From Apostichopus japonicus (Eukaryota > Echinodermata > Holothuroidea > Aspidochirotida > Stichopodidae), in assembly GCF_037975245.1 (NCBI RefSeq), contig NC_092582.1, positions 8,930,501 through 8,994,500 on the forward strand: a stretch of 64,000 bases of DNA, written 5' to 3'. The position numbers and the translations under genes were made by a program. This document shows positions 1,926 through 42,800 of the stretch, one piece after another. Position 1 is the stretch's first letter; each line of letters opens with the position of its first letter. The notes beneath the pieces were generated by a model that was given only the letters and a program-made list of their open reading frames with translations, ran no database searches and was not told the origin of the DNA.

Positions 1926-4361
1926 TGTATCACTATAACAGAGGTAAACGATTGAATTTCCAAACCGGTCGATGGGAGGTAAGATATCATACATGTTTCT
2001 GTTATTTTTCTTCTCCATATACTACAGCTGTCGGCAGATATTTTGTGTTACGTTTTCCTTAAATTTTGGAACTATGATTATTAATGAGTTAATGTGAGTT
2101 GGATTAAATATCTCTTTTAAAGGATATAGTATCGATCTATTTGAAAAGTCAAAATTAATTTAAGAAAAACCCTGTTTGTTCATCTGGCAATACTGTTTGC
2201 ACTGTTAATACATGCTGTCCAATTCAGTTTATGCTGTGGGCTGCTATTATATGATATAAATACTTGACACAAATAAGACTGTGTGCGATCTCTATAGTAA
2301 CTTGATAAACAGGTTTTCATTGCTCTCTGATTGGCTTAAATCATTATCATAGGAAATGTTATAAATGGATAGACACTATCTTAGGGCTGGATGGTTCAGT
2401 TTCTGAAGGTCACTTGTTAGAATCCCATTGGATACTGTATTAAGGTTGCTGTTTCAAACATCTGTTGATTATTTAATTATTTCAGACGCACTTTCCTATT
2501 TATTAATTGCTTATACATATTATTTTGTTAGAGAGAAACTGTACCCGATATTTATTTACTATTGATGTTTCATTAATGACTGATAATTCGTAATTACCAG
2601 AGCAGATTCTTTGAATTAGTATTTTTTTAAATTTCGAGTGACTGTATCCCTTCTCAATAATCGCATTTCAAACCGTTTGTTTTGTTGATTTATCTAAACG
2701 ATCCGTGACATCGTTGACATATATATTTTCAATTTCCGATAATACCAACATCTTAACCAATTCCTCGTGACAAGCTTATTTTGTAAGTTTGAAGTAACTA
2801 CTAATGCAAAGCAATTTTCAAGCCAAACTCTCACTATTTACTGGTATAGTAGATAGTAAACCTCGTAGAGTATTAAAACCGTTAACAATCACTTCAATTT
2901 GTTTAGTTCTTTAGCATTACTTTGTTTTGACATTTTCTGACGTTTCAGTTGTTTTTTTGTATGTTTTATATCCTTTTGTGTAATTTTACTTTTTTTTCAG
3001 GTAATATTGTTTATATATCTATTGCGAGCATGTATTTACCCATTCAGGGATATAATAAGTTGAAATTAATTCAAATCACATCAAATCGAACGTTGGACAC
3101 CGATGAAATCGTGTTTCCCAAACACACCGTATTTTGTTTGAATGACGGCACACTAATTCATTGATCTGTGTATCTTTGTCTTCGATTCACTCATATTACT
3201 CAGATGTTCTGTGGAATAGCGAAACCAAGAAGGCATCGGCGGTTGTTCTTGAAGACATGAAAACTAATTTGACTATATAAATGATTCCCATATGTTTGTG
3301 CAAATTCACCTATTAATTTACTACTTTATTTTTTCTTCTTTTTTCAGAACATGACTAAAAACAAGCCATTCTTGATCATGGATGACATTATAAAATATCA
3401 CTTTTGTAGATGCCAAGGCGATCTTTGTTAAGCTAACTAACAATGTTGTTGCATTTATTATCAATAATGCGATGTTAACATCATATCTCTTATCTTTCAT
3501 CCTATCTTCATCCTCTTACAGGATCTTAACAGTGACTACTTCAAGCAGTTTGATAAAGCAGCAACTAAGACTCAACAAGTAGAAAGAACTTCAATGGTAA
3601 GAAAGTAATGTGCACGATCTTTAATACGTGGTCATTTAGCGTTGAAAATTATCACAAATTAATTATAATGGTGAAGTGAATTTAAACTCTTGTTCGAGTC
3701 AACGTAGCAGTAATATTAGTTTTAATTTAGCAACCCCCAACAACTAACAGAACACCAGTAATTCAATGAGGGCGTGCTGGTATGTGCGCAAGTAATCTAT
3801 TATCCACCACATACTCTTAAATCTTCCTCATCGTGCTTCACGAAATGAGGAACAGACAACAAACTTTTACACGAAAGCTGTGACTGCACACCGTTCTTGT
3901 GATTACTTTATTGTAATGGGCCTATAGACAGGGACTGACTTCTGTTAACGGGGTTACAATGCTTTTCCTGATTATATGCCACTCGTCCTTCCAGTACAGC
4001 TGCCATATATTTGATTTCTAATCGAAATAAAAATAAAAATAAATATAAAAATATTATGTTATGCACTAGTCAGCTAGTCTTGTGAATAATAGCGTGATTA
4101 AAGTAAGCATATATAAAAAAAAATAAAAAAAACATTTAACCCTTTATCCCTTCCACCTCTCCCTTCCCTCTCCCCAAAGACACATTCAACTTGCCTATCA
4201 ATTTCAATAATTAAAGACTCGTTAGAATTTAAAACAATATTTTCCTCCCTCCTCCCCCCCCCCCCCTCTCAAAAAAAGACAAAACTCTTTACGTTACTTT
4301 CACATTGCTTTCCTTGTTTAGGATCGTCAAAGGACCAGACGAAAATGTACCATATCTTGAG
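1926..4361 (+). CDS. possible 3' end of an unrecognised gene; three short exons, CaaX-like C-terminus
   Basis: Three candidate exons sit between AG and GT with matching phases: 1926-1978 (two bases then 17 codons, reading YHYNRGKRLNFQTGRWE), 3522-3596 (25 codons, starting DLNSDYFKQF and ending RTSM), and 4322-4361 (DRQRTRRKCTIS then TGA). Donors are GTAAGA, GTAAGA and GTGAGT, and each acceptor has a pyrimidine tract. The joined end is basic and closes with C-T-I-S, which fits a CaaX prenylation box. The stop lies one base before a perfect donor, so a 3'UTR intron would follow. Alternatively, the last exon read one base later gives IVKGPDENVPYLE and could join 4823-4888 (FFVRDNVRQC... then stop). 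I do not recognise the protein, and upstream exons would lie before the window. Chance exons are possible. Confidence 0.3.
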
Positions 4362-4888
4362 GTGAGTGTAACGGTTAAGATATCAGGATATATGATGGGG
4401 GTCTAATGTGATACATGTACAATAAGATATTATCAGTCCTGTATACAAAAATGCTACCCTGCTGACAAATCATGTGTTCCTGGTAAACAATATAAGAAAT
4501 CAGTTTTTGTCTGGATTGCCTCTGATAATAAAACATCCTAAGAGGAAGGATATTGAAAATTAATCAGGCAGAATATTGATAAGTAAGTAACCAATTATAA
4601 TTCCCCTCATCGCCATAGTCTTACCGGTAAATATGTCATAGTTTTGCTTAACATCATGAGAAAATAGGTATTAAAAAAACATTGAAAGATTTTTGAAAAT
4701 TAATTGACATCATCAACAATAGAAAGATCCCTGAACAAAATTAAGCCTAAAACAGTATATGTTCTATAGCCATCTATCATATAATTATTTTATTGTACTG
4801 AGATTTGTTTCTTCTTTTCCAGTTCTTCGTTAGAGATAACGTAAGGCAATGTAATACAAATGATTCGACCTGCACACCTGCTGAGTGA

Positions 4889-7800
4889 CAGTACGCTTAT
4901 GACGTCAGTGGCTACCAACAATGTGACGAACACTACATTTAAAGGTCTTCCATTCATGTTGGAATTTGCAAAGTCCACATAGTGGTAATGTTTTAGTTAC
5001 GACAGCAAAGAATTATTGCAAATATCTGGATACATTCTTTAATATATTCATTGATCCCTATCATAGTAATGTATTCTTTCTTACTGAGGTTTTGTTTACG
5101 CTTGCGCACTATTCAATCTTTTCTTGCATGTCATGATATGACGGTCTTGAAGTAAACTGATATATCTCTCATTCTGATTTTAGTAGTTGCATATCATCAT
5201 CAGCGGTAAAGCCGATGGCCTAAAGATCAAGCTCGTCAAAGTTTTTATCAGTTCATCCTATTTTTGGTTTCGATGACAAGTATGGGTGAGTGTTTGTATG
5301 TATGTGCGTGTGACGCCCTACTTGTAAACACGACATCTCAAAATAGGAATCATGGATACTTTTCATACTTGGCTTGTAGATTCCCCATATCAAGTGAGAG
5401 AATCCAATTGTTTTGGTGGAGATCAAATTCATCTGAGGTCACCAGAGGTAAAAATTGACAACCTTGTAAATACGATAGCTCGCGTTAGCATGGGTAATTT
5501 TCATACTTGGCATGTAGATGCATTTTATTAAATAAAAGATCCCTATTGTTTTGGTGGAGGTCATAAGTTTATCCGAGTTCACCAGAGGCCAAAAGCTGAA
5601 AACTTTGTAAACACGATATCTCATGATAGGAAGTCTAAATACTTTTATGCTTATCATGTATTTGGGTAATATTGAGTAGAAGAATGCCTGGCCTCATAAA
5701 TTTACTGACTCGTAACTTTAATTGTGAGAAATAATGTCTTAAGAAAAGTATTTCGTCCAAATCAATCAGTCACCTGGTTTATTTTTTTCTCTTTCGTTTC
5801 GTTTTGTTGTGACATTGTTAGTGTGCGTTTTGTCTGTGTTTTGATGAAATCTATAACCACTATGCTAGTATGATTTAATATGTGTATTTGAGAGAAGTTG
5901 TTAGTTCGAAGTGAAATAAAGCACGGTGACTTTCTGGTAGCCTTAGAATGGCATCAAATATTTTCTGTGTAAATATTAAATTTGAGGCAATAGGTTATTC
6001 TGCTTGTTGATTGAGCAATATATTTAACACCATGAAAATACTTCCGAAATCCACAAATTTCTGACAAAAATGTATTTTGATATGTTGCTTTTAAACGAAC
6101 AGTCGCGTATTTCACCAAATATCAGCTCTTTAAAAGAGGGTGTTTTCTTCTACAGAGAAAAGATGAAAAAAAAAGGAATTACGTAAGAATTATTCTCAAA
6201 TTTTAGGTAACTTAGGTTTTTTATTCACTGTACATATTTTCTATTTTTTTCAGACCAAATTTAACCAATAATAAAATCATTAGGGTTATGATAATATCAT
6301 GCATTCTGAATACCTGACTACCCGTTTATGTTACTTTAATATAGCGCTCTAAATTTCAACGTAAATCAAACACCGCATTTAACCTTATGTGAGTAGATAT
6401 AAACGTCAGTTCTAACTTTCGTTATGTTTGACGACGTATATTCAACTTCTTTAAAAAGCTGTTTGAAGTTAGGTCATTTAACATAACTAAAACAAAATGA
6501 ATGGATTTAATGTTACTTTCGTCCCTACCCTCCACCCCCCCCCCCGCCTTCTCTCTCCACTCTCTCCCCACCTCTCTCTCCCTTTGTCTCTCTTACGATA
6601 GTGTAATAGAAACATTTTTTCCATAAACGCCAACTTTTATTCCATGTAAACTAAAAGAAAACGATTCTCTCGAAGTTCTTGATTGCTACTTACGTTGCTA
6701 TAGTCACCGGATATGACATGTACTTAATTTAAAAAGAGAAATATGTTAAATTGGTCTGAATCTGTTGTCATAGAAACTTATTTTTCATCAGCCATACGTT
6801 TATTTTAAACATTTTCCCTTTTTGAGCTTGTATATATGTTTTGCCTCCTACAATTAATATAACGTTATTATATTATTATACATACAAAGCTCCAATTTAA
6901 TAAATAAGCTACAATCATGACCTTGTTTTATAAATCCGTCATACAAAGTGTTTTGATGTACAACATAATTTGTTACTTTGCCAATGGTATATACAAAAAT
7001 TGACGTGAAGATGCTCGAGCAAGGAAAATTGCTCAGCGGGTAATCGGTGCTCAATTACCATCGTTAGAGTACTTGTACCACATTTTCACAATTTTATGCT
7101 GGTATTTATCACTTCTTTCAAATAATGCAACATGATACGTTAAGTATCAATATGTACATCCACTTTAATTTCTATCATTATTGATAATATTAATAAAACT
7201 ATTCTTAAACAGGTCAAAAGTGTATATTATATTATGCAAGTACATTATTTGTTACTATTTCTAGTGATCAATCAGAGAGCATGAAATTATATTAAATAAT
7301 ACGAATTAATTTTACATTAGTTTAACTTGCGTTTGGCATACTGTAAAACAAATCAATTGTGGCAGTTGATAGATATTCCATTACATGGGAGGCACCAAGA
7401 GAGGGGGATGGGGTAATTCCCCAAGTCCAGATGCTTCCTACTACCAGTTTTGTGGTAAAACGAAACCTAAGTAGTTCTGTCCCCTAACTTTGTATTTGAT
7501 GTGCCATTTTATGCAGGTACAGTTTTGAAATTCACCCCAGCCCCCCCCCCCCTCTCTCTCTAGACATTATGGTACCATTACTGTTCAGAAAAACCGATAA
7601 AAAAATTATATTGAACTATTTTGTTGTTACGTCTATCCAAACATCGTACATTACTGTGTTTATTCATTACGTTCTACCTTCTGATCAATTGTTTTAATTT
7701 TTCCAAAGTCTAATAACCCGAAATCTTTCAAATGTTTTTGTATATATGTAATCTTTTGGTTAAATAATCAAGATAAAAGAATAAAAACAACTTAACGATT

Positions 7801-9290
7801 TAAAGGACAACATCGACACAAGTTAGATAGAATCAAACATCAACCAAATTAATGATAAATTGCGGATATGCTATATATGTCGATATATCAATCGAATATT
7901 CCGCAATGATTTCTGTTTTATAATGTTCATAAAAGTATCATAAGACTATAGTGGCTGTGAGCCGTACTATAGTGGCTCTGAGCCCAAAAAAATGATTGTG
8001 AGCTGTTATTGACGATACACTATAACTATTATCAGACTAAGTATATTGTGCATCTGTAATTAAATACTGAATTATATTAACGATTGTAAAATATGCTTAT
8101 TGCAATAAATATGAAATCGCGTTTTTATGAAGTTTTCCCTTTTCTGTTTGATTTGAGCGCATTTTTGTCATATAAAAATTTGAGTTTACCCCTCCCCCTC
8201 CCCCCCCCCCAGAATAAAGGGATGATCCTATAGTCTAAAGTACATTAATATGTATCATGTATGTTACGTACAACCTAAATTCTTCAATATTGTTTCAAAA
8301 GATACAACATATAGTCTACTCCTATTTCGTATATAATCAACCTTCATTTTACCAAAATTTCCCAAAGGGAGGGGCTAACTCTCATCTTAGTCCTCTCCTC
8401 TCCGTGACATAAAGTGTCATCCCACTCTCACCCTTCACCCAAAATGGTGAAATTAAAAGTATAAGATACGTAACCAGAATTCAAAAACTGAATCTAAATT
8501 CGGAAGTCCGAAGAAGGAGAAGGAAGGAGAAACCTACCGTTGACCTATACGTATGTGGTCAGAGCCTTCACAAGGTGTTGAAATGTCAAACATTTTGTCA
8601 ATCAAGTATAGATGAGAAAGTGTAACAGCGAAGTGTAGACATGTAAGAGAAGTGCTCTGTAAAATGCAGCTGGTTAACCAAAGGGGACAGTTCTTCTCTA
8701 CTCCATCATCAAGATATTATCACATTCAGTCATAGTCTCGATTAAGGAGGACTAGGTTGAGAGTAAACTATTTAAGTCGTTTTATTTTCGTGCCCCAAAC
8801 TCTCTTGGGTGACGTTTCTAAACAAACAAGTAACCCATCATCAAAATGTCAATGAAAATAAAGATATTCAAAGTACTTCGGTTCCCTCATTAAAGGTCAT
8901 GTAATTAACAAAGAGGAATAATAATGCTTTCGAAAGGTCGACATCCTGTCGAAGCCACTTATCATATGCATGGGCCCGGCAGAAAAATAAATGTCGTTAT
9001 GTGAACCATTCATGTATAGAATTTCCTTAGCGTTTTTAAAACACTGCATCAATGAGCGAGTCTCCTTCACAAGCCAATTTACAAAGGAGAAATGCCTTTC
9101 GTACCCTTTTGTTACATTCTTTTGTTATTGTTCCACTTAATTGTGAAAAAACGTCCCAACTTTACACGGTGACTCAGGCTATACGAAGTAACTGAACCAT
9201 TACATGTGTCGCCTACAATAAGGAGGCGCGACAAACAAGCTGTTTAGTATTCACGTATAGGATATTACAACTGCAGCAGTACGGGTCAAA
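4889..9290. other. gene-free spacer
   Basis: No coding exon is supported. It holds a tandem repeat near 5.3 kb, an AATAAA at 5915-5920 that could serve the putative gene to the left, and poly-C tracts near 6535, 7540 and 8200. The rest is AT-rich sequence without visible structure. Confidence 0.5.
5321..5690. repeat. tandem repeat, period about 142 bp, about 2.6 copies
   Basis: The phrase TTGTAAACACGATATCTCA recurs with small changes at 5322, 5464 and 5605 (spacing 142 and 141). Between copies, 'tttcatacttgg', 'gttttggtggag' and 'tcaccagagg' recur in the same order. The copies are clearly diverged, so the array is not recent. Confidence 0.8.
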
Positions 9291-9296
9291 TATATA
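9291..9296 (+). promoter_or_regulatory. candidate TATA box of the acidic precursor gene
   Basis: TATATA lies 53 bases upstream of the chosen ATG at 9344, a spacing that would give a very short 5' leader. In an AT-rich genome this may be chance. Confidence 0.3.
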
Positions 9297-9343
9297 CCTG
9301 TTGTTGCTTTATCAATAGTTGAGTTACAGACCGTTTATACAAC

Positions 9344-9445
9344 ATGGCGAAAATTATAATACTCAGCGTGTTGAGTTTTGTCTTATGCAACATGTTCGTT
9401 GTTGAGGGACGTTCACTGGATTTACAGAAAAGAGATCTTTCGAAG
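9344..9445 (+). CDS. exon 1 of acidic precursor: signal peptide
   Basis: ATG plus 33 codons end at AAG before GTTTGT. The hydrophobic core covers about residues 4-20 with likely cleavage near VEG. The following LQKR is a dibasic site, and the exon ends DLSK. The donor is a little weak, so the join to exon 2 over 5.5 kb rests on phase and on the basic, KR-flanked sequence on both sides. Confidence 0.7.
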
Positions 9446-12400
9446 GTTTGTTTATACCATCTATTTGATATCCTGATTCGATTTTTGTCCTCCCACGTTT
9501 GATCAACTCCAAACCAGTTTTAGGTGAAATAGAGAAAAGGTGCACGCAATCTGCCCATGCATTATTATTGTACTTAGTGTAAAGTTTCAAAGCAAGTTGC
9601 CAACCAAGCAAGTTACCAATTTCAAATGTTTATATATTGCGTTACATGTTAACCAGCTCCATTCATATATCCAAACCGTTTTTATAAGTCGCTTTGATAA
9701 ATTTTGCTGTAGCTCGTTAGAACTTTCCAACACATACGACTCATATAATGTTGGTTATTAATTTTACGTAATGACAGCGGTAATGAAGGCGTAAATAATG
9801 CTGATTTTGTCAATCATTTCTCGTCTCCACAGAAGATGAATATAACGCATATGCGTTGAACACATATCATAATACTAGGGGAAGGGGAGGAATTCCCCCC
9901 CCCCATTCGATGCAAATCATGTAAAGTCACATTATATTCAATTTGATGTTAACATGTTCAGAGAGGCTAGACCAAACTCACTTTGATAGTAAACACGTAA
10001 CTTTACCCATTATACTTTTTGGTGGTCTGTTACAAAAAAAAAGTATTTTGTGAGTTTTAAAATCTTCATGTGAAGCTGCTTTTAAGATGCCTTGGTTTGG
10101 CAATTTGTGATAGTCTAACTCGTATAGGGTAATATTATTATTCAATTCAATTCCAACTTATGTATTAACATGTACACAACAGTAAATACAGGTGTATGGT
10201 ATATTCAAAAATAATTTGCCTAAGTAAGTGTTCAATAAAAAAAAAAATCGCGTTTATCAAGTTAGTGAATGAAACCAGAAGAAAAGAAAAAGAAAGAACA
10301 AAAGTTAAGAGTGAAAATCTTAGAAAAACGAAGAAACGTGGAAAAAAACTACTAGTTATAATATCCCAGACCACCCATGTGTAATATAAGCCCTAGAGAC
10401 TAATTTTAGACTTTATATTAATATTCAACATTGCATGAATTTCATTCACACATAATTTTTTTTTTAAAGATTCACCCATTGCATTACCATGTGGCTGAGT
10501 AATTTAGTTAGGCTATAGACCCGTACACACATTCATAACATTTTGCTCATCATAACAAACTTTACGAAAATAAAGACCAAATACTCCTTTTAAGATGATC
10601 ATAAACATGTAAGTAATCATAAGATACTAGTTTTTGATATCAACATGTCATTTTCTGTAGGCCTATTTTTTAGTATTGTTTTTTGACTATACAGTTCTGT
10701 GCAAGTATTGCATTCATATATCAAACAGCTCTTTATTATGATCTGGGTTTAATTCACAATAATTGTGGAGTGGAGTCTGCCTGTAAACTATTATACGATA
10801 TACATATAGCCTAAGTATAATATAAATTGTTTTCATACCGTGGTCGTAAATCTTTGGTGCAATCACAATTAATCGCCCACCTACTGTAACTATAGGTCAA
10901 ATTGTAGAAGTTTTATAAAGCATCGTTTACTTTGTAGATTTGCCAACAAACGCCTAAAAATTACCACAAAAAAAAAAATATTTGCGAATTCTTAGTGTAG
11001 CCATTGTCTCTTCAGTAAAGGTTCATGCGAAGTTTGATATTTCAGTCCTTTTTATTACAGTGTATAAATATGACTGAGTTTGCTTTTACAAGGCATGTAC
11101 AAATCAAGTTTTCAGTTCGTTTTTTGGTAAACCAAACACCACTTTTTCAGTACTAGAATAAGCCAATAATAACAATAGAAACTGACTGCTTTCACTATTG
11201 CTAACACACTGACACTGCACTTCAACGTTAATCAGTGGACATTTTTCAAATCAAAATTGTAAAGACAAGTGTTTACCATTTAATTACTTTGTTATGGTAA
11301 ATATTTGCTTTATAGAAAGCTGGTACGAGATTACGCCAATGTAAAGGTAGTCAGTATAGATCCCAAATTTTAGCACGCTATAATTGCTAGAAGATTTCAA
11401 AAAGTACTTTCCTGGAGGTCTTTACTCTCCAAATTGTTCTCAGACATTTTTAAGGAACACACAAGATGACTGAACGTCCCAGTGAGGAAAATTTCCTCGA
11501 AGGTTGTAATAAAAACTAGACCAAAGGTGACTATATTTGAATATCTAGCATATTTAGGGCCAATACAGAATACCTTTAAACGGTCAATTCGATCTCCCTG
11601 GTTTTTGTTAGATGTGTGGTGTGATTTGAGAAAGAAAACCTGAGGAAATTATTGGCGTACCAGAAAATTGCAAACTAATACTTTCATGTTAAAATTATCT
11701 GCGGTAGCAAACTCACTGCCATTGAGTGTTATTCCTGAATGGTAAATCCCTTAGGATGTTATCTCCGGAATATAGGATTGATATATACTCTGACGAAACA
11801 AAGTCGAACCCATGCTGGCACCCTACTTATGCCCGGTAGACGCTTAACTTCTTAAGTACCGTAAATTAACCTACCAGCAGTGAGGTTCGCATTAATGTAT
11901 TAGTATAGACAACAATACTTCAGAATTTTCAGGGAGTTGTTTCCATAACAACTCCCTGGTATATTGGTAGTACATGTACACAGTGCCCACTATTGTTCTT
12001 ATTAGCATATTTGCCATCAGCAACGATGACCCCCCCCCCCTCCATCCCCTTTGTCCCCCCACCCATCACTCCTCTCCTCATAGCTCTCTTCCACCCTTTT
12101 TTTCTCCACACCTTCCTTTCTTTGTCCTTTTCTAGCTTATTCCCTACCCCCTTCCCTTAATCCTCTCTTTGTCCCTCCACTGTTCATCTCCTACCTCTCC
12201 TCTCTCCCTGTTGGTTTCTTTCTTTCTTCTCTCAATCCCTTGTCTACTAATCCTTTTACATCTATCTCTTTGTGTTCACCATGCTTATTAACCTGTCTGT
12301 ATTCTGTGCGTGTTTTGTCCCTTCTGTTACTGTTACTAATTAGCCTATGAAGAAGATCCTGCTAGGATCGAAACATCGGTCCAACTTACTTATACACATT

Positions 12401-15400
12401 CTCTTACACGGGCTCTCTAGTGGATAAGCAGTTTGCTAACAGTTTTATTTAATTTTGACCTTCAAAGTAGTGTATAGAGTGGATCAAATTGTTTGGTCTC
12501 GAGCCTAAATGCTACCATGGGGTGACTTTCCTTTCAACAAGTATCCTATACGAACATAATATATTGCCTGTAGATAAAGGAGTCTGTATTGAACGGGAGG
12601 ACGGTGATGGAAAAACAATGATTTTAATTGAAATTTTCTTTTCACGTTTATTTTCCCAAATTTCAGATTTAATACAATTGTTTTGCTGCTGCAAACTTTG
12701 CATATAACTTAATTTTTACAATGAAACGGACGATTGTGTTTGTGTGTGCATGTATCTGCGGGCAAGGGGGAGGGGGGGGGGGGGAGTGAGAAGGAGTGTG
12801 AAAATGTACAATAGGTTCCCAATCACCTTACATTAGAATAAACAAAAAACATATAAAAAGGTGGAGAAGCTGAGGAATGCAGATGGGAGTTTCTTTTGAT
12901 TACTGTTATTATTTTATTGTTCGTTCGCCCAATGCACAATCGTCGCCTACAATCTTGGAGTTATAAGCCAAGTGTTAACTGAAGTAAATTTTACACACCT
13001 TGAAGAAAGAGTGACGACCCCTGCAATGACTTTGAACACTCCTTGGTATTTGATATACAAATAAAAGACAAATTAATATATAACCGCAGGATTATTGGTT
13101 AGTGCAAAATAATTGAAACGAATAACTATCGTAAGTTGTAGGGTTATTAGTCTGCTAACAACGAGGATAGATGAAATAATTTAGCTGTACGAATGATGCA
13201 CACAGGCGACTAAAGAGAGTTAAACAATAATAAAACATCGTTTTAACTATGTTAAAAGGCAGTCATATGAATGAAAACTGTTAGCTAGATTTTGAATGTT
13301 TGACACAACATTTTATTGATTTTTACGACAAATTCTTTATCGTTTACGGATATTATCTGGTATCCATTATTAATTATTGAAAGAAAGAGGAAACAGTTGA
13401 AAGAGAACACTGTATCGGAAGTTCTGTTTGGTGAGCATGGTAATTTACTCACTCCTCTCTTACCTGTCTCCGTTTTACTTATGCACTTAATCTACCTAGC
13501 CTACAACAGTTAGTAACATTGTTAGCACTTCGCCCCCACATAACACCAACTACATCTTCCTTCCAATTCTACAATCCCCAAGGCTTACAACTGTTTTTCT
13601 TGTGTGATCTTACATCCATTGGAATCTTGTTGGTTTAAAAGTTTATGGTGAAGATATGACTGGCAGCTAGGACCTGTATTCAAGATAATATCATCTGCAT
13701 CAAGCACTGATAAGTATCATCTTACAGTTTGCAGATTTTTGGACATGAAGTTTTTCATTAGATTTCCTGTCATGCCTGTCTATTTTTTGTGCATGGGTAC
13801 CAGTTGTGCAAAATATTAGTTGATGTTAGTGCTTGCTTTGTATATTATATTTACTTATATATAGCGTGCTGTATGAGTTTTTGCCTTTGCAGGCTCTTTT
13901 CAACACAGCCCTTTTGCTTTATTAACAGTTCTCAGAATCTTTATGGTTGATTTTCCAGAAGTTTTGGTTTTGGATTAATGTTAGTGTATCTGAAGTTCTG
14001 TTTGGTGAACATGGTATTTTTTTGTAATGAAAAACCGTCTCAGGTGTTCTGATTACGTTACTCACTGCGAATGTGGGTATGTACAGTGATTCAACCAAAA
14101 GCACTGCATTATATTTTGTTCATAACATTTTTTCACACAATGATGGTATACCATGGAGATAATTAGTTAAGATCTTATCACTTAAGCATAGGCATATTTA
14201 TAAGTTATTTGTTATAGGAACGTTTCCATCAAACTCATCAATTTTGCGGCACATGCGCAGTTTGACTATGAATCTGCTTCTTCTGAGTTGGTTAATAAAA
14301 TTTGACGTCACATAACCAGATAATATATCATGTTTATTATTTCATGAAGTCATTAGATAGTTTTTGTCTTATTTTTTCCCAAATTTTTCGTCTCTCTTAC
14401 CTGTCTCCAGTCTCATATTGCATTTTCAACATGTACATAACCTACTAAATTGGTAACGTCAGAGCCGTACAGCCCTGGGTAACATTATTGCACTGCGCCC
14501 TTAATACCACATGTGGGACTCCGCCCACTTTCTCCTCCTCCTGAATCTGTCATTCATACGTGTTTCTATTTAAATCCTTTCTTTCTATTTGCTTGTTTTC
14601 TTTTGTTTCCTTCTTTCTTTTTGGCCAATATGAATATTACCTGCATGAACGGTCTCTTTTTATCATAAGTACAAACTTGGCATCCAATTATTGTATTAAG
14701 AATCATCAATATGATACAAATATCATCAATAAGCGGATTTGTTTGGAGGAGCTTTATTGGAGGAGCTATATTTTGCAAACTTGTCAACTCAGTCTCTCCA
14801 GAATAAGCATCAACGTGTGAATTGTTAATTAGGCTGGAAAAGCATTCCTCGTTACTAAGGAGATATACATTTCTCGTTCACTTGCATATAAGGCAATAAA
14901 AATATTTACAGTGTCGAAGCATTTCACTGAAATAATATACAACCAAATTTTCATTAATTTTCATTTTTAATTTCTTCAGGACAAAGCCGTCCGAGAAATG
15001 ATGTCATTATTGAAGGTTCGTAAGCGCCTACACAGCTTGGAAGAATCCACCAGACAACTTGCTCCCGTAACTGACCAACCACTATCGAAAATTGATGAAC
15101 AGGTCGATGTCCAAGATGGAAAAGGTGTCACTCACACTCAATTGTGTTCCGATGCAGTTTCGTTCCTTCAAAGTGGGTCTGAAACGATTGTAAGTGTACA
15201 TAAACCCGATCAAGGGCTCGCCAATCATTTTTGTACAGGGTAGGGTTTGGGGCTGTGATGGTATGTCATTCAGGGGAGGGGTCTAAGGGGTGGGCTGATC
15301 CCTCTGATTTAATTATTGAGTACCTAAAGCTCCCAGAAGAGGTATAGGTAGTTTCTCCCTGGGAAACTAACAATGCAAATCGATGTACCATGTGTGAACC

Positions 15401-17002
15401 AAAGATAGCTGTAATGTTTGAAAGATGGCAGTAATGGATGGAGGTGGTGGGGACATGGTTAGTGGTGAATTGTAAGTTGTAGAAAAGTCCAGAGTGGCTG
15501 CAAATGGTTCAATGGGTACTTATAGTTGCAAATGGCGTTTACGGGTTGTTGATGACGGTATAGTACGTGATGGCGCAATGATTGAATTGGCGCTAATTGC
15601 TAGTCATGGCGTTAATGGTTCGAGACAGTTACAATGGTTGGTGAATCCAGTAATGGTTGGAGATGATGGTGTTATTAAGAACGTATATTAATGTCTATAG
15701 ATGGCGGAAGGTAACGGACATGGTGAGACGTGGTGGTCAGGTATAACAGGATGGGTGTGATAAGGTTGTAGGTGATGGTAGCGTTGGAAATGGCGGTAAT
15801 TATTGCAGCTGGCTCGGATGACGGTAATTGTTGGTAATGTTGGCAATAGTATGGGCACGGGAATGGTTGGAAATAGTGATAGGATGAAAGGTAATCGTAA
15901 GATTGTTTCATGATCCTTTTAGGCATTGGTGTAGGTGGTTCTTTCTTGGTAACATTGTAGCACGGCGCCCCCCCCCCCCTCCGATATCTTCCTTTGTGGG
16001 TATATCCATACCCTGAAGCTAATTTATACGCACTCGGTAACTTTATATGTACAGTATGTGTTATACTAATATACGTAATTGATCGAAAAACCTTTTTTAT
16101 ATTTATCACAGGAAAAACGTGATCTCGTGATCAATTATGTGTTCAATTACTGTATTAAACTGGGTGGTTCCGACGAAGATATCACCGAGATCCTCAACGC
16201 CCTCACTGGACAGTCAAACGAGCTCGATGGCTTAATGAATAACAACGATTGGCCGAATTGGCCCGGATTCGGTTCCAACACGACACCTGTACCAGTACAA
16301 ACAACCATTGATTATTGGCAGCAGCTTTACGACAAACTGTTCGAAAATGACGACAACACTAGTACGGAAATGCCGTCAACCACCACAGACTGGTGGGAGG
16401 CATTCTTCGACGAGCTCTTCAACGAACTAGACGAGTCCGAGACGACTACAGTGACGAGTACGATGACGTCAGCCGCGTCGTCAACTTACTATTTTGACGT
16501 TGAAGCAGCTTTCGGGGAATTTTGGAATATGATTGAACAGGAACAGGAAGATGATGACGTAACGACCCCTAAAGGCTCGTCTACGGTCACGCCAGTCACG
16601 ACCCCGGCAGCTAGTTCTACTGAATCGTCTGAACTTGATGACGTTTTACAAGATTTCCTGGATCTGTTGACAGAGCAGGAACAGGAAGCAGGAGAAGAAG
16701 AAGCAGGAGAAGAAGAAGAAGCAGAGGAGAATGACGTCACTACTCCACGACGAACCACGATGATGCCTAGTAGCAGTACTACCGAATCGTCCGACGTTTG
16801 GAACATGGTCGAGGACGACGATGATGAAACGGATGAGGGCGCCATCATTACGGTAAATGACCAGCAGGGCAATGGTGAGAATGACGTCAACAATGACTTG
16901 CCTCCTATAGATGTAAATAAGAGGAAGGAGATAAAGAAGAGGCTGCTCAATCTCCTAGCTGAATCTCTCTTAGAGAAAAGACGTCAACAGATGCGCAAAT
17001 AG
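9344..17002 (+). CDS. secreted acidic dibasic-rich precursor, 3 exons, about 400 aa
   Basis: Exons are 9344-9445, 14980-15189 and 16112-17002. Both introns are phase 0, with donors GTTTGT and GTAAGT. The 34-codon first exon is a classic signal peptide (MAKIIILSVLSFVLCNMFVV then EG) followed by QKR. Exon 2 is basic (KVRKR) with one Cys; exon 3 opens EKRDL and has a second Cys at NYC, so one disulfide across the junction is possible. From about residue 140 the chain is Ser/Thr/Pro linkers alternating with acidic, aromatic-rich helical stretches. It ends in a strongly basic helix (KRKEIKKRLLNLLAESLLEK). Dibasic sites suggest processing in the secretory pathway. I recognise no family. It could be a peptide-hormone precursor or a matrix or biomineral-type acidic secreted protein. 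The exon chain is well supported by phase and splice sites; the function is open. Confidence 0.75.
11930..11958. repeat. perfect 12-bp hairpin, shared with a site at 42.8 kb
   Basis: CAGGGAGTTGTT, a five-base loop TCCAT, then AACAACTCCCTG. A near copy lies at 42785-42811. This marks a fragment of a dispersed repeat, within intron 1 of the acidic precursor gene. Confidence 0.6.
12341..12398 (+). repeat. dispersed repeat with hammerhead-like core, copy 1
   Basis: The sequence runs CCTATGAAGAAGATCCT, GCT, AGGATCGAAACATCGG, CCAACTTACTTATACACA (with a T before the last block). GATCCT and AGGATC form a six-bp stem with a three-base loop, followed by GAAAC. The inverse complement occurs at 55829-55883. 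A one-base change in the first part would read CTGATGAAG, the start of a hammerhead core as found in Penelope-like retroelements. The assignment is tentative; the repeat itself is clear. Confidence 0.65.
14980..15189 (+). CDS. exon 2 of acidic precursor: basic helical segment
   Basis: Seventy codons lie between TTTCTTCAG and GTAAGT, phase 0 at both ends. The exon begins DKAVREMMSLLKVRKRLHSL, so a peptide of about 17 residues could be released between QKR of exon 1 and RKR here. It has one Cys (QLCSDAV). The A-V-x-E...K-x-L-x-S-L-E spacing faintly recalls the start of parathyroid hormone. Confidence 0.75.
16112..17002 (+). CDS. exon 3 of acidic precursor: acidic repeats and basic C-terminus
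   Basis: 296 codons and TAG, opening EKRDLVINYVFNYC. Five imperfect units follow, each a Thr/Ser/Pro stretch and then an aromatic acidic helix: DYWQQLYDKLFEN, DWWEAFFDELFNEL, AAFGEFWNMIEQEQE, DDVLQDFLDLLTEQEQE and DVWNMVEDDDDE. A Glu-rich run (AGEEEAGEEEEAEE) is encoded by GAA/GAG repeats and may vary in length. Base composition is visibly richer in GC than the flanks, as expected for a long coding exon. Confidence 0.9.
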   Translation, partial: EKRDLVINYVFNYCIKLGGSDEDITEILNALTGQSNELDGLMNNNDWPNWPGFGSNTTPVPVQTTIDYWQQLYDKLFENDDNTSTEMPSTTTDWWEAFFDELFNELDESETTTVTSTMTSAASSTYYFDVEAAFGEFWNMIEQEQEDDDVTTPKGSSTVTPVTTPAASSTESSELDDVLQDFLDLLTEQEQEAGEEEAGEEEEAEENDVTTPRRTTMMPSSSTTESSDVWNMVEDDDDETDEGAIITVNDQQGNGENDVNNDLPPIDVNKRKEIKKRLLNLLAESLLEKRRQQMRK

Positions 17003-21789: not shown

Positions 21790-22197
21790 CTAAGCATAAA
21801 AACTATCAAGAGATTCCTCGGAGCTTGAGGCGTGGTATGTCTCAATTTCGTCGTCATAGATGCTGTAACGAAACTCATCTTCCGTCGCCTCCTCCTCCTC
21901 CTTCTGCTTATCTGTTGCAGACTTCAATCTCGCTTCCTCCTCTTTCTTCAGGCGAGCCTTCTCCAGACACCTTTGCCAGTCCCTCTCTGTGAACTTGGCC
22001 TTGGCCACTTGTTTGACACGAATAATCTTGTCCTTCTGCAACTTGACGCGCTTCTCATGGCTGTTCTCCAGCTTGGATCGGATGTCGTTGCTCTGTAACT
22101 TGCTCATCCTCTCCTGCTTAGCTGCATTAGCCTCTTGAACTGCACGGACCTTAGCACTCTTCAGCCTCATCAGATTGGTAGTGTTGAGGGTGTGATG
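21790..22197 (-). CDS. exon 5 of stathmin-like gene: third repeat and acidic tail
   Basis: 135 codons and stop. RLKSAKV near its start matches RLKSARV of exon 4 at the same exon position. DIRSKLENSHEKRV is the third helix motif. A KE-rich helix and a Ser/Glu tail ending DSFYA follow. Confidence 0.9.
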   Translation of the reverse strand, partial: HHTLNTTNLMRLKSAKVRAVQEANAAKQERMSKLQSNDIRSKLENSHEKRVKLQKDKIIRVKQVAKAKFTERDWQRCLEKARLKKEEEARLKSATDKQKEEEEATEDEFRYSIYDDEIETYHASSSEESLDSFYA

Positions 22198-25100
22198 CTG
22201 ATAACATAAACAGAAATTATATTAACGAATTCATCATACCAAATATATACGTATTTCTAGTATTTTAATTTCATTAGTTAGTGTGTTCAGAACGTGTTGA
22301 CGACACTTACCTTTATAACTGTTATTAAATATTAATCAAACGTTTAAATAACCACCGAGGCTTTCAAACAGCCAAGTTAACCGAACATATCATACATCAT
22401 AAGCCGGAGTATCATTTCAATTATAGCGATCGGTGAATTTTGCATACTATTATTGATGCGATCCAAATACAATCATCGTCAACGTTCTGCCTAGACTTTA
22501 TTCTTCCTAATAATTTTTCTTAAAACTTACAAAAACACGATTTATAAAGTTAAGTTGGGTATTAGAACTGGGGGAGTTGTTGCCAAAAAACCAAAACAAA
22601 TTCCCCAAATCTTCAAAAATTTTTACTAGGCCGCTATATAACGAATATGAACTTCCGGTAGTGTTTCTATACTCGTTTATGTAGAAAAATGTAGAATTTT
22701 GAATTCTTCAACCGAGTAAACCTATCCAACAGGAATAAAGAAAAATATAAACTGCAACTCTAGTGTGGTAACGACAATCTCACCTGTCGTCTCTCGTCAG
22801 CCTGGCTGATCTTTTGGGAGAGTTCTTTCTTTGCCTCTTCCTGGGTTGCTTTTTCTGCATTTTGCATCGCTCTCCTGACTTTATCAACTCGAGCGCTCTT
22901 CAGACGCAGTCTCTCCTGCTTTTGAGTTGCTTGTTGCTGTCAAGTGCAGAGGAATAAATCTAATTATTATTGATGTAATTATGCTGAAATGGACTTGGAA
23001 AAGACTGCATTTTATCTTTTGTGGTAGATTTAGGTTACAACGTATACTTAACATATAATGATCGGGGCTAAAGGTGCTGTCGACTTTGATGGTAATTTGA
23101 AACTCTCTGCAAATAACAAGATCAAAGACCTATATACACACATCACACCATACACTTGGATTCGATACAACGTAAGCAGAGGTGCACATGAGAAAAAGGA
23201 TTAACCAAGGGCCTCAACTCATGTAATCATCTTGCTGCTTATATTAGCGACTCCCTTCCCCCTTCTGTGACAATCCCCGTCCCGGCCCCTTTCTCTTCTT
23301 TCCCGCGCAGCTTATATTAGCGACTCCCTTCCCCCTTCTGTGACAATCCCCGTCCCGGCCCTTTGTCTTCTTTCCCGCGTAACCCTAAATACAATATGCA
23401 TCTGTTTTTCAGTACGAGAATTACAAAGTAATCACCTCACGCCGCTCCGTGGCCTTCTCCAGCTTCCCTTCGATGTCCTTCTTGGACACGACCTTCTTCC
23501 GCGGCTTCGTGGTAAATTTGAAGTGTGGTGGAGGTGGTAGTGGACGCTTGTCGAGACAAACTTTGAAGGCAACACTGCCCTTAATCCCCTCTATCTCCTG
23601 TTCGGGGGCTTTACAGCTACTGGCGGTGAAGATTCCCTGCTTGGCCAGATGGTCGAGCATGTTGACAGTTCGTTTGCCTGTCTTTTTGTTCATGCCTTGT
23701 TTGGCAGGCAATGGAGGTAGACGGACTCCTGGTTAGAAAATGAGAAGAAAAAATATGGGAGGGGGGGGGTCAATTATGGGGTGAAACTTTTCTGATTAGA
23801 GCATTTATTTATAAATATTCATGACAAGTTTTGTTGATATATTTTCGTTGAAAGTTCTTTCTAAACTGACGTTGTTCCCAATCTGTATATGTTTGTATAT
23901 CTCTCAAATTGAACCACCCTCTACACCCACCCTATCTCCACCCCCCCCCCTATACCCACAACAATACAAAAACGTTTACACCTCTTCTAATAGAATACAA
24001 AACTGCAGTTCGTGTGGTAGATAATACCCATATCCTTAACTTGTAAAATAATAATAATAATAATTATAATAATAATAATGACAATAATATACAAGTGCAT
24101 AAACATACCACTCCGTCGGAGTTTGTTGGGGGAGATTGCTGTTGGGGGTTCATCCTCAGAGCTCCCCAGGTCTGGGACGTAAAGCTCCAAACTGATCTGC
24201 TTTGGAGCTGATTTAGGGCGGGACTTATTGATGAGTCGGAGTTGGAACTCATCCAGGTCTTTGTGCTCGGGGACGGGCCTCACCTGCATTGAAATAACGA
24301 AAATGATAGTTATCCTGTAAGTTACGTTCAAAAGTAACAGTGAGTCACTTTTCTGCCATCAATTTCCGCTTTAATATTTTCTTACCTTTTACTCTCTCCC
24401 ACCCCTCCCAACTGAACAAACACAAACACACACAAATGAAAATGATTTATATGTAAATTCAAAACAAAACAAATAGCTATGGGAAAAATGATCGTATCTG
24501 ACCAGAGAGTGTCGGGGGAGATGGGGTCACGGGTCAATTAGGGGTCTCGTGGAAATGTGGGATGAAAAATAAGCCACAAACAGGGAGTCCGGTGATATAA
24601 TTATCCCAGACGCCCGATCTGGCGCATTCGGATTAATGAATTGATAAGGTTTAGTCTCTGATGTTTGGATAGAGTAAATTTGATTTCATTTCAGATGTGT
24701 TTTTAACGGGTACGATGTCTCTCATGGATATGAGCGTCTCTAGAGTATTTTTTTTTTTTTTGGCCCGGTCTGACTACGGTACTTCATCAACCAGATTTGA
24801 TACGCTGTTCACTTCCTGTACCCTGACATGAAGTTGTTCAATATTACATGTCTATCATGCATGTGATTAAAACTATAGAAACCTACGCTAAAACGAACTT
24901 GAAAAAAAAATCTGCTATAGCGGATGCGTATATATGTTGTTTGTTCGAAAAAAAGTTTACTTCATGCAGGTAGCATGTTTTTTTTTTGCCGAAATATTTA
25001 AAAATAAATTACTGCCCGCACAATATGTTGTGTGTGCTACTTAGTTCATCTATTGTTATTTGTCGAATGTAAAAAGTGAAGAATGTTTTATACAGTGCCC

Positions 25101-39800: not shown

Positions 39801-42800
39801 AAGTTTCCATCTGTGTTACAGATCCTTTTGCAATTGCTACCTAAAGTAACAGTCACTCCTGCTCTTTAAATGCTGTCTGAAATTTAGAGCATTCTGATTC
39901 GAAAGTGTCGATATGTATGCCTTGTCTCAACCTCACTTTTCAGTGATTTCTTTCTTTCTTTGTACTGATTTTTTTGTACCTTCTCTTATTTCAAGGACTA
40001 AGAAATCCAGTTACGGCCTATTTAGCATGTTCAGTGGCCTCGTCGGGTCAAAGAAACTGAGCAAGGAGGACATGGGCCCAGTCATGGCCAAAATGAGAGA
40101 TCATCTCATTGGTGAGCAATTTAGGTTTCAATCATTACTGTGATAAAGATGTCATTCCCATTATGGACACAAATGTGGTTGTGTCTCATGGCCTTCGGGC
40201 AACAGCTCCTTCATTGTGAGACATCTTACAGTGTGCTGTTGGTTCTGCTATATGTCACCATGTATCTGTTAGTTAACATTGTTTCATCAAGCATTACTGT
40301 TACACACATCATGAAGTAATATACATGTAAGCTGTAAGATGCTTCAGTGTATCATAAGTTTTCCTTGCCGAATAGACAATGTTTTTTAACCCTAATCTGT
40401 AAAATGGCACACGATATGAAGAAACGTTTCAACTGAACTTGTGTCAGGATTTCTTATATTTATCAGTATGAGTAGGTATCCTTTGTGAAAATGTAGCTGT
40501 AATTATGTATGTACTCTAATTATCTAAATAATGATGGAAAGAAATTCAAAAACATTACTCTCAGAAGGATTTAGTCAATTACAGTTATTCTTATTGTAAC
40601 AGCATTCGTCTGTTTCTGTCTCGTGTCGGTATAACGGACCGGTCATGATGTGTCTCTCAATGTCTCATTTAAATGGATTGTCCCATCCCCAGACTTTTAA
40701 TTCAACCACTGTAGTTTTTACTCTACAGCCAAGAACGTTGCACAAGAAATTGCTGAAAAAGTCTGCGATTCAGTTGCCAAGAAACTGGAAGGAAAAGTAA
40801 TGGGAACTTTTGACCGTAAGTTTTTCACTTGGAAAGTTTTGTCTACATCACTATTATTACAGACTAAAGAATTTTATTGCAACTGGGGGAAATGTTATAC
40901 ATTAACATCTAGACCATAAATGTTTCAGTTAATACCGACTTGTCAGCTGCAGTTTGCCTTTAATAAAGATGTCTAAGTGCATACATATATCTCCACACTA
41001 AGATAGCTTTCAGCACGTTTCCAAATATAAATCTTTGGCAGGTGTGGCCAATGTGGTACGAGCCGGGATGGAGGAGTCGTTGGTACAGATCCTGACACCT
41101 CAGCGCCGTGTTGACATCCTCCGGGATGCCGTGGAGGCAAGGTCCCAGGGGCGTCCCTATTCCGTCACCTTCTGTGGAGTTAATGGAGTTGGGAAATCAA
41201 CCAACTTGGCCAAGGTAAATGAAGAAAAATCTTTGTCATAGGAAGACCATCCAATTGTGAATTTTGCGAGAACCGCATAATTAACAATAAATTCTCTTGG
41301 CAGTGGATTCAGCAATGCGGTCAGAGCTCCTACTCTATATTAAGAGGGCACTTGATATTCACAGGGTTACTTTGTCTCCCGTATCTTTGGGGTAGAAAAA
41401 ACCCAAGTGTCAGGTTGTAGTTTTATTTGTCAGTGGGCTTGCGGCTGCCAAACTTTATGTTAACTTGTGTTTATTCACCCATTAAGTATTATTGTAGCTA
41501 AACAGAGATTTATTTCTCTTCAGTTGATTGCCAATTTTCCTCTCACTTTCAGATTTGTTTCTGGCTCGTAGAGAACAAGTTTCGCGTCTTGATCGCTGCC
41601 TGCGATACCTTTCGTTCTGGCGCCGTGGAACAGCTGAGGACCCACCATCGAAGGTTGAATGCACTCCACCCAGTCAAAGGGGGTTCTCCTAATGTGTTCT
41701 TGTTTGAAAAGGGGTATGGGAAGGACTCGGCTGGAGTCGCTATGGAAGCCATCAAATACGGTAAAAAAAATGAGATTGTTGTTTGTTGGGCATTGAATAC
41801 ATTTGACATACAGAAAAAGATAGTCCAGATTTTCTTGTTTAGACTCAGGGTTACATGTAAGATACAGAGGTGTCTGAACCTGCTATCATGACTAGTTTAA
41901 CGCAAGGAGTGTAATGCCCACTTAAAAATTGACTTGTGTATCGGCCTGGCCTTTATCAATGTTAAGCCGGCAATTAGTAGTCTTCCAGGGTGACATTTCA
42001 TGAAGGGGATCTTTCAACAGTAATGACTTTACTGAACATGACCATCATTCTTGCTACTGACAGTAATGACATAATACAATTTCAAGATGATGTAAATCTA
42101 CGCCTAATGCCTCCCCCTAAAAATACTTATGGTTCATTTTAAATACACTTGAATGCTTACCATTTCACAACAAAAATGAAATGCTTTGAAAAAGTATCCA
42201 CAAATCACACTCAAGAAATACTTTTGTTTTCACCATTCCATTGCACTGTGATATGGTTAGTCTGCTTTAGATGCCAGTGACAGTCACAAAGAAACAATGT
42301 TGGTTAGATTCTGCTGGCTAAGTTATTATTGTATGTTGTCTCTACATTCTTTTCAATGTAACCATCACATCACTAACATCAGGTCAACTTTATTGCTCCT
42401 TTAGCTAATGACTTTAATTACGACATCGTGCTGATTGACACGGCTGGGAGAATGCAGGATAACGAACCTCTCATGAGAGCCTTGACCAAGGTAAGTATTA
42501 AAGCAGCTTTTTGCGTCTTTTTCTATGATATTTCTCAACCTCACTGACTCCACTATGCCATAACGACATACGTAACTTGCATATCTAATTAAATCTTACT
42601 TCAAATGGTGGCATAAAAGTCTAAAAATTTGCAACTTTCAACTTTGTTTTTCTCCAAGATATTTTCCGTTGGAATCCCAATTAACCTCGCCCATAATATG
42701 AATATTTAAACACTACGAACGTCATTGACCAATGTGTAATCCAACACCAAGCTTGATTTGTGTACAGTCTATTTGGCAGTTGTACCAGGGAGTTCCATAA

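What the first reader, a model, noticed from the sequence alone, without database searches (positions are those of the whole stretch)
9344..17002. Unassigned secreted, dibasic, highly acidic precursor
A clean three-exon gene with a signal peptide, several KR/RKR sites, two Cys, an acidic repeat region and a basic C-terminal helix. The mix of peptide-hormone processing sites with a long acidic Ser/Thr/Pro body fits no family I know.
Basis: partly seen in the sequence, partly recalled or inferred. Interest (0 to 1): 0.75.

Follow-up and report, generated by a model that had tools for sequence, protein, structure and literature searches.

The report
Possible echinoderm parathyroid-type hormone gene
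An echinoderm gene encodes a secreted, very acidic hormone-like precursor whose first peptide resembles TIP39, a member of the vertebrate parathyroid hormone family, and could be the unidentified partner of the parathyroid-type receptor found in the same genome.

Summary
The gene is as described: three phase-0 exons (9344-9445, 14980-15189, 16112-17002) give a 400-residue secreted precursor, pI 4.1, charge -51, two cysteines after the leader, a strongly acidic body and a basic C-terminal helix. It matches only itself in the genome, which is an echinoderm's. Pfam, NCBIfam and PDB sequence searches give no family. One lead goes further: the peptide after the first KR (DLSKDKAVREMMSLLKVRKRLHSLEESTRQLAP) aligns with human TIP39, 11 of 33 identical without gap, its first residue at PTH position 1. 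Shuffles of the whole precursor reach the score in 7 and 5 of 20,000; thirteen peptides were compared. phmmer scores this peptide with TIP39 above human PTH and PTHrP, the whole precursor between them. The genome has a gene whose best PDB match is PTH1R; a published ophiuroid search found no PTH ligand (PMC5627052, passage). Against: Pfam models and BLASTP do not report the match, the family Trp is absent, and no transcript or orthologue was available. I favour a PTH/TIP39-type hormone on an unusually long acidic precursor (0.42) over a lineage-specific prohormone (0.33).

The parts
9291..9296 (+). TATA-like box 53 bases before the start codon
   Evidence: pattern; not tested as a promoter
9344..9409 (+). 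start codon and hydrophobic leader (residues 1-22, signal peptide by inspection)
   Evidence: 11-residue hydrophobicity 3.14, better of 2 candidates in 3001-14979; cleavage after residue 22 is my reading
9410..9433 (+). short propeptide RSLDLQ ending in KR (residues 23-30)
   Evidence: translation
9434..9445 (+). first four residues (DLSK) of the TIP39/PTH-like peptide, end of exon 1
9446..14979 (+). intron 1, phase 0
   Evidence: GT-AG
14980..15066 (+). rest of the TIP39/PTH-like peptide (residues 35-63), predicted helix
   Evidence: TIP39 alignment; helix over exon-2 residues 2-31, pLDDT means 96, 96 and 74 in the first three blocks of ten
15019..15027 (+). RKR inside the helix (peptide positions 18-20); basic cluster near those of PTHrP and TIP39, alternatively a cleavage site
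   Evidence: PMC12823539 passage
15067..15189 (+). linker with Cys 90, end of exon 2
15190..16111 (+). intron 2, phase 0
   Evidence: GT-AG
16115..16120 (+). KR 106-107, possible prohormone convertase site between Cys 90 and Cys 118
   Evidence: use of the site not shown
16235..16918 (+). acidic Ser/Thr/Pro body (residues 146-373, charge -54) with short acidic amphipathic segments near residues 170, 195, 234, 279 and 331
   Evidence: low-confidence model of exon 3
16919..16999 (+). KRK plus basic C-terminal helix (residues 374-400, charge +8)
   Evidence: (low-confidence model)
17000..17002 (+). stop codon
17024..17029 (+). AATAAA poly(A) signal
   Evidence: pattern

Best explanation
This is a single-copy echinoderm preprohormone. 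The leader sends it to the secretory pathway (inferred). A convertase cuts after KR 29-30 and frees a helical peptide beginning DLSKDKAVREMMSLL (inferred), ending somewhere between about residue 62 and KR 106. That peptide is a PTH/TIP39-type ligand: its N-terminus would enter the transmembrane pocket of the class B1 PTH-type receptor found on contig C18, and the helix from about position 15 to 31 would bind the receptor's extracellular domain (two-site mode described for PTH and TIP39, inferred here). The long acidic, Thr/Ser/Pro-rich region would act as granule-packing or charge-balancing spacer, and the basic C-terminal helix is either a second peptide or the counter-ion of that spacer (speculative). 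Shown: reading frame and splice sites, sequence similarity, presence of the receptor gene. Not shown: expression, cleavage, binding.
For: Gene model. Ungapped TIP39 match with 11 of 33 identities in the register set by the KR cut. Local score 39 reached by 49 of 100,000 plain and 39 of 50,000 hydrophobic-pattern-keeping shuffles; score of the whole 400-aa precursor reached by 7 of 20,000 full and 5 of 20,000 block shuffles; none of 481 dibasic-preceded 33-mers, mostly non-coding, reaches it. phmmer with TIP39 scores the 33-residue peptide (E 1.5e-4, single comparison, window chosen after the alignment was seen) above human PTH (2.2e-3) and PTHrP (5.1e-3); the whole precursor scores 4.4e-3. TIP39's distinctive Asp7, which PMC12823539 puts where PTH has Ile5 and PTHrP His5 (passage), is Asp here; Arg20 and Leu24, common to the human PTH, PTHrP and TIP39 sequences compared, are present. 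Continuous helix predicted. PTH-type receptor in the same genome: joined exon pieces match PTH1R at 9e-71 against 1e-64 for PTH2R and 1e-61 for secretin receptor. PMC5627052 (passage): PTH receptors present in ambulacraria, no ligand found in ophiuroids.
Against: Pfam Parathyroid and TIP39 models report nothing, though the two genome searches had no positive control; BLASTP finds no alignment at E up to 100; PDB phmmer with a 40-residue query does not list TIP39 at E up to 10; TIP39 against the genome gives nothing. Thirteen peptides were compared, so p values need about a 13-fold correction. Human, bovine and chicken PTH in the same register are no better than their hydrophobic pattern explains (pattern p 0.56, 0.52, 0.60) and PTHrP hardly (0.10). 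Conserved Trp23 is Ser, position 28 is Thr, position 4 is Lys not acidic, and Lys19 replaces TIP39 Glu21. The receptor candidate reads WIIKAP in TM5, Ile as in PTH1R where PTH2R has the Tyr that contacts TIP39 Asp7 (PTH2R letters recalled). Intron 1 lies inside the peptide, unlike TIP39. No orthologue, transcript or peptide was available.
Confidence: 0.42

Rival explanations
1. A lineage-specific echinoderm neuropeptide/prohormone precursor with no PTH ancestry: one or more KR-bounded peptides (for example the Cys90-Cys118 two-chain product after the KR 106-107 cut) are the active ones and the TIP39 likeness is convergence of basic amphipathic helices.
For: No family model matches; two cysteines flank a KR, which could give a disulfide-joined pair; the A. 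japonicus survey PMC6586643 (abstract, outline and passages) describes echinoderm-only precursors, some with paired cysteines or acidic spacers; PTH itself matches only by pattern.
Against: Would not predict a match beyond hydrophobic pattern, in the register of the KR cut.
Confidence: 0.33
2. A granin-like or biomineral-associated acidic secreted protein: the acidic body binds calcium or helps sort granules, and the basic sites are incidental or only modulate it.
For: Charge -54 over residues 146-373, 25% Asp/Glu and 28% Ser/Thr/Pro, several short acidic amphipathic segments; pI 4.1.
Against: No Pfam family; acidic residues mixed with aromatic amphipathic segments rather than long Asp/Ser runs; eight basic clusters, one just after the leader.
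Confidence: 0.13
3. An antimicrobial-peptide type precursor: an acidic prosequence neutralising a cationic C-terminal helix (residues 377-400) released at KRK.
For: Charge +5 for residues 377-400 beside a strongly acidic prosequence.
Against: Best hydrophobic moment in the C-terminal helix (0.35) is below the 95th percentile of shuffled 18-mers (0.38) and lower than that of the N-terminal peptide (0.44); the prosequence is much longer than in antimicrobial precursors I can recall; no Pfam hit.
Confidence: 0.08
4. A wrong gene model: exon 1 belongs to another transcript, so leader and first peptide are not joined to the acidic protein.
For: Intron 1 is 5.5 kb, exon 1 only 34 codons with a moderate donor (AAG|GTTTGT); exon 2 frame alone is weak.
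Against: Better of two candidate leaders upstream, phase 0 agrees, TATA-like and poly(A) patterns frame the gene; the TIP39 match runs across the exon 1-2 junction.
Confidence: 0.04

Closest known systems
TIP39 (PTH2), tuberoinfundibular peptide of 39 residues
   Same: 11 of 33 identical without gap: TIP39 Leu4, Asp7, Ala9, Arg11, Glu12, Leu16, Leu17, Arg22, His24, Leu26, Leu33; dibasic site just before the peptide and another inside it; helix predicted
   Different: starts two residues later; Trp25, Phe10 and Glu21 not kept; precursor 400 instead of 100 residues, and intron four residues into the peptide instead of in the leader part
PTH / PTHrP
   Same: short propeptide ending in KR after the leader (PTH, recalled); Ser3, Arg20, Leu24, and Leu15 of PTH; basic cluster at 18-20 near PTHrP 19-21
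   Different: 4 and 3 identities in register, not beyond hydrophobic pattern for PTH; no acidic residue at 4; no Trp/Phe at 23
insect iPTH / PXXXamide (protostome PTH-receptor ligands, PMC7224569, passages)
   Same: peptide after a KR, ligand of a PTH-type receptor (proposed here)
   Different: iPTH is amidated (GXX strictly conserved); this precursor has no Gly before a dibasic site
Echinoderm-only precursors (AN peptides, Ajnp9-25 of PMC6586643)
   Same: leader, dibasic sites, acidic spacers in some
   Different: in the part of the table that I saw the precursors other than that of AN peptides (555 aa) have 39-290 aa; sequences are in figures not held, so no alignment was possible
Granins
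   Same: acidic, secreted, multiple dibasic sites, a cysteine pair (recalled features)
   Different: no family hit; a KR lies between the cysteines; Thr/Pro/Trp-rich body

Membership tests
PTH/TIP39 family | secreted precursor with peptide directly after a dibasic site close to the leader | tested here: met
   residues 23-30 RSLDLQKR, then DLSK; cleavage itself not shown
PTH/TIP39 family | sequence similarity to a member beyond chance | tested here: met
   TIP39: 7 and 5 of 20,000 shuffles of the whole precursor reach the score, about 0.003-0.005 after correction for 13 peptides; not met for PTH, doubtful for PTHrP; BLASTP reports nothing
PTH/TIP39 family | residues common to human PTH, PTHrP and TIP39 in this register (Arg20, Leu24) and the aromatic at 23 | tested here: inconclusive
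   Arg20 and Leu24 present, aromatic at 23 absent (Ser)
PTH/TIP39 family | match to Pfam PF01279 or PF14980 | tested here: not met
   nothing reported for the protein or the genome; human TIP39 itself hits PF14980 at 1.8e-24
PTH/TIP39 family | cognate PTH-type receptor present in the organism | tested here: met
   C18:579118-587184, best PDB match PTH1R 9e-71
PTH/TIP39 family | activation of a PTH-type receptor | not testable with these tools
   needs a cell assay
PTH/TIP39 family | intron in the leader or propeptide, not inside the peptide | tested here: not met
   intron 1 after the fourth residue of the peptide; first coding exon of TIP39 carries 43 of the 61 residues before the peptide (PMC12823539 passage)
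iPTH / PXXXamide | C-terminal amidation signal GXX | tested here: not met
   no Gly before a dibasic site in the translation
CRH, calcitonin, secretin/glucagon, PDF ligands | sequence similarity beyond chance | tested here: not met
   8 recalled peptides, region p 0.09 to 0.70, full-precursor p 0.14 to 0.92
Granins | family profile match | tested here: not met
   no Pfam hit to a granin model

The most novel reading that the evidence does not exclude
This is the first ambulacrarian ligand of the PTH/TIP39 family, missed so far because it sits at the head of an unusually large acidic precursor and has diverged; a TIP39-like peptide in an echinoderm would suggest that TIP39 keeps the oldest form of the family, and the precursor may yield further peptides (Cys-linked middle piece, basic C-terminal helix).
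Probability: 0.38. Interest if true: 0.8.

Novelty: new variant of a known kind. Interest (0 to 1): 0.62.

Why it matters
PTH-type receptors are reported in sea cucumbers and other ambulacrarians (passages), but I saw no report of their ligand in the listings and passages of the searches made here; most subscription papers are not held. A named candidate peptide and a named receptor gene from one genome make the pairing directly testable, and would bear on how the PTH/TIP39 system arose before vertebrates.

Tried and rejected
CRH, calcitonin, glucagon, secretin, VIP, PACAP, GHRH and PDF peptides: no alignment beyond chance. An initial alignment of human and bovine PTH starting at AVRE (p 0.05 and 0.03 on the region, 0.25 and 0.14 on the full precursor; chicken PTH 0.09 and 0.52) was dropped because it does not agree with the KR cut or with the stronger TIP39 register. 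Weak Pfam, NCBIfam and PDB hits (among them Elongin_A, EAD7, Mn_catalase, an rRNA maturation protein, CdvA, LR_gamma8; E 0.017-1.3) were taken as chance. AlphaFold of exon 3: mean pLDDT 41, not interpretable as a fold; no fold search was run because a lone helix or a disordered model would give meaningless matches. Six peptide strings in full-text papers: 0 papers. Genome searches with PF01279 and PF14980 lacked a positive control, so they do not show absence.
Full report
Observation. The window lies at G000:C22:8930501-8994500 of a 671.6-Mb assembly. The spliced reading of 9344-9445, 14980-15189 and 16112-17002 gives 400 residues with both introns in phase 0. The leader MAKIIILSVLSFVLCNMFVVEG is followed by RSLDLQKR. 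Exon 3 is open over 296 codons, which 0 of 3000 shuffles achieve; exon 2 is open in 46 of 3000 shuffles, so it rests more on splice sites and frame. A scan of 3001-14979 for hydrophobic leaders with a phase-0 donor left two candidates, of which exon 1 is the better. A TATA-like box and an AATAAA frame the gene. pI is 4.1 and charge -51; residues 146-373 hold -54 and residues 374-400 hold +8.

Organism. A contig (C35) carries COI followed by what I recognise as ND4L. At conserved COI positions AAA stands for Asn (for example in RMNNMSFW) and AGA for Ser, as in the echinoderm mitochondrial code (flatworms share this, recalled). On C29 cytochrome b, ND1, ND2 and COI (identified by recall) lie on one strand.

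Copies and known families. The protein matches only its own three exons in the genome at E up to 1, and a second search with residues 108-212 finds only itself at E up to 10. Pfam, NCBIfam and PDB sequence searches give only chance-level hits.

The TIP39 lead. Thirteen recalled class B1 ligand peptides were compared with the region after the first KR and with the whole precursor. Only TIP39 stood out (region score 39, 0 of 1000 shuffles; full score 42, 1 of 300 shuffles). With more shuffles: 49 of 100,000 plain, 39 of 50,000 keeping hydrophobic positions, and 51 and 105 of 50,000 when TIP39 itself is shuffled plainly or by pattern. For the complete precursor, 7 of 20,000 full and 5 of 20,000 block shuffles reach 42. 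Correcting for thirteen peptides leaves about 0.003-0.005. The alignment needs no gap over 33 residues and its register puts Asp31 of the precursor at PTH position 1 (TIP39 residue 3), so the KR cut falls where the family needs it; of the twenty registers tried it scores 34 and the next best 5. Fixed in that register, 4 of 200,000 plain and 237 of 200,000 pattern-keeping shuffles reach the score. None of 481 dibasic-preceded 33-mers from six-frame translations of the window and the loci then held (six loci left out) reaches it; that set is mostly non-coding and is a soft control. TIP39 used as phmmer query scores the 33-residue peptide at E 1.5e-4, human PTH at 2.2e-3 and PTHrP at 5.1e-3; the peptide window was chosen after the alignment was seen, and the complete precursor scores 4.4e-3, between PTH and PTHrP. 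In the same register the identities are 11 of 33 here against 5 of 33 for TIP39-PTH and TIP39-PTHrP; PMC12823539 counts nine and seven for those pairs (passage). TIP39 letters were checked against PDB entry 7f16 and that review.

Fit to what is known of TIP39. The review passages name Asp7, Phe10 and Glu21 of TIP39 as receptor contacts, Asp7 as the residue that replaces PTH Ile5 and PTHrP His5, and an internal Arg-Arg at 22/23. Here Asp7 is kept, Phe10 is Val, Glu21 is Lys, and the RKR overlaps the internal basic site. AlphaFold on exon 2 alone gives one helix over its residues 2-31, as any amphipathic peptide of this kind might.

A receptor. Human PTH1R's transmembrane part (recalled) finds its best genome match on C18 (TM3 exon, E 4.9e-9, 50% identical), near hormone-receptor domain exons. 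Nine pieces lie in order on the minus strand from 587184 to 579118. Joined, they match PTH1R best (9e-71), then PTH2R (1e-64), then secretin receptor (1e-61) (60 of 109 matches shown). TM5 reads WIIKAP, with Ile as in PTH1R; PTH2R has Tyr there by recall, so the Asp7 contact of TIP39 is not explained. PMC7042368 (passages) counts 1 and 2 PTH-type receptors in two sea cucumbers. PMC5627052 (passage) says PTH receptors are present in ambulacraria and that its search found no ligand in ophiuroids. PMC6586643 (abstract, outline, passages) reports 44 A. japonicus precursor transcripts; its outline names no PTH type. [quoted passage not shown] PMC7224569 (passages) describes insect iPTH, amidated and under 12% identical to vertebrate members.

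Against. BLASTP reports no alignment, PDB phmmer does not list TIP39, the Pfam models report nothing, and TIP39 finds nothing in the genome. PTH in this register is explained by its hydrophobic pattern alone (p 0.52-0.60 for three species), PTHrP nearly so (0.10). Trp23 is missing and intron 1 lies within the peptide. So membership is proposed, not established.

Mechanism and rest of the precursor. Most likely the first peptide is the hormone and the remainder a spacer with possible further products. The KR between the two cysteines could yield a disulfide-joined pair. The body alternates Thr/Ser/Pro linkers with acidic amphipathic segments near residues 170, 195, 234, 279 and 331. The basic C-terminal helix has a lower hydrophobic moment (0.35) than the N-terminal peptide (0.44), which argues mildly against an antimicrobial role.

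Verdict. A well-supported single-copy secreted precursor gene model; a TIP39/PTH-type hormone at 0.42, a lineage-specific prohormone at 0.33. The proposal is cheap to test because ligand and receptor come from one genome.

Noticed in passing
G000:C18:579118-587184 (L015), minus strand: A class B1 receptor gene whose best PDB match is PTH1R; other class B1-like exons lie on the same contig near 2.76, 2.86, 3.32, 17.68, 18.29 and 18.48 Mb.
   Followed up: partly
window 41580-41783, + strand: Frame matching the SRP54-type GTPase domain (Pfam 2.3e-7; position), probably the SRP receptor alpha subunit by recall.
   Followed up: partly
window 21790-24358, - strand: Two frames resembling CCDC181 by recall; no Pfam match at E up to 0.01.
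   Followed up: no
window 12343-12382, intron 1: A short motif GAAGAAGATCCTGCTAGGATCGAAACATCGG after a pyrimidine-rich stretch, once in the window; Rfam gives only a chance-level CRISPR repeat match (19.9 bits against a cut-off of 37). By recall it looks like a piece of a mobile element.
   Followed up: partly
G000:C29 and C35: C29 (31.2 kb) holds COI once in full (in pieces) and again in part about 16 kb away at its end, and C35 holds a further copy, as if a mitochondrial genome had been assembled as a dimer plus a fragment.
   Followed up: partly
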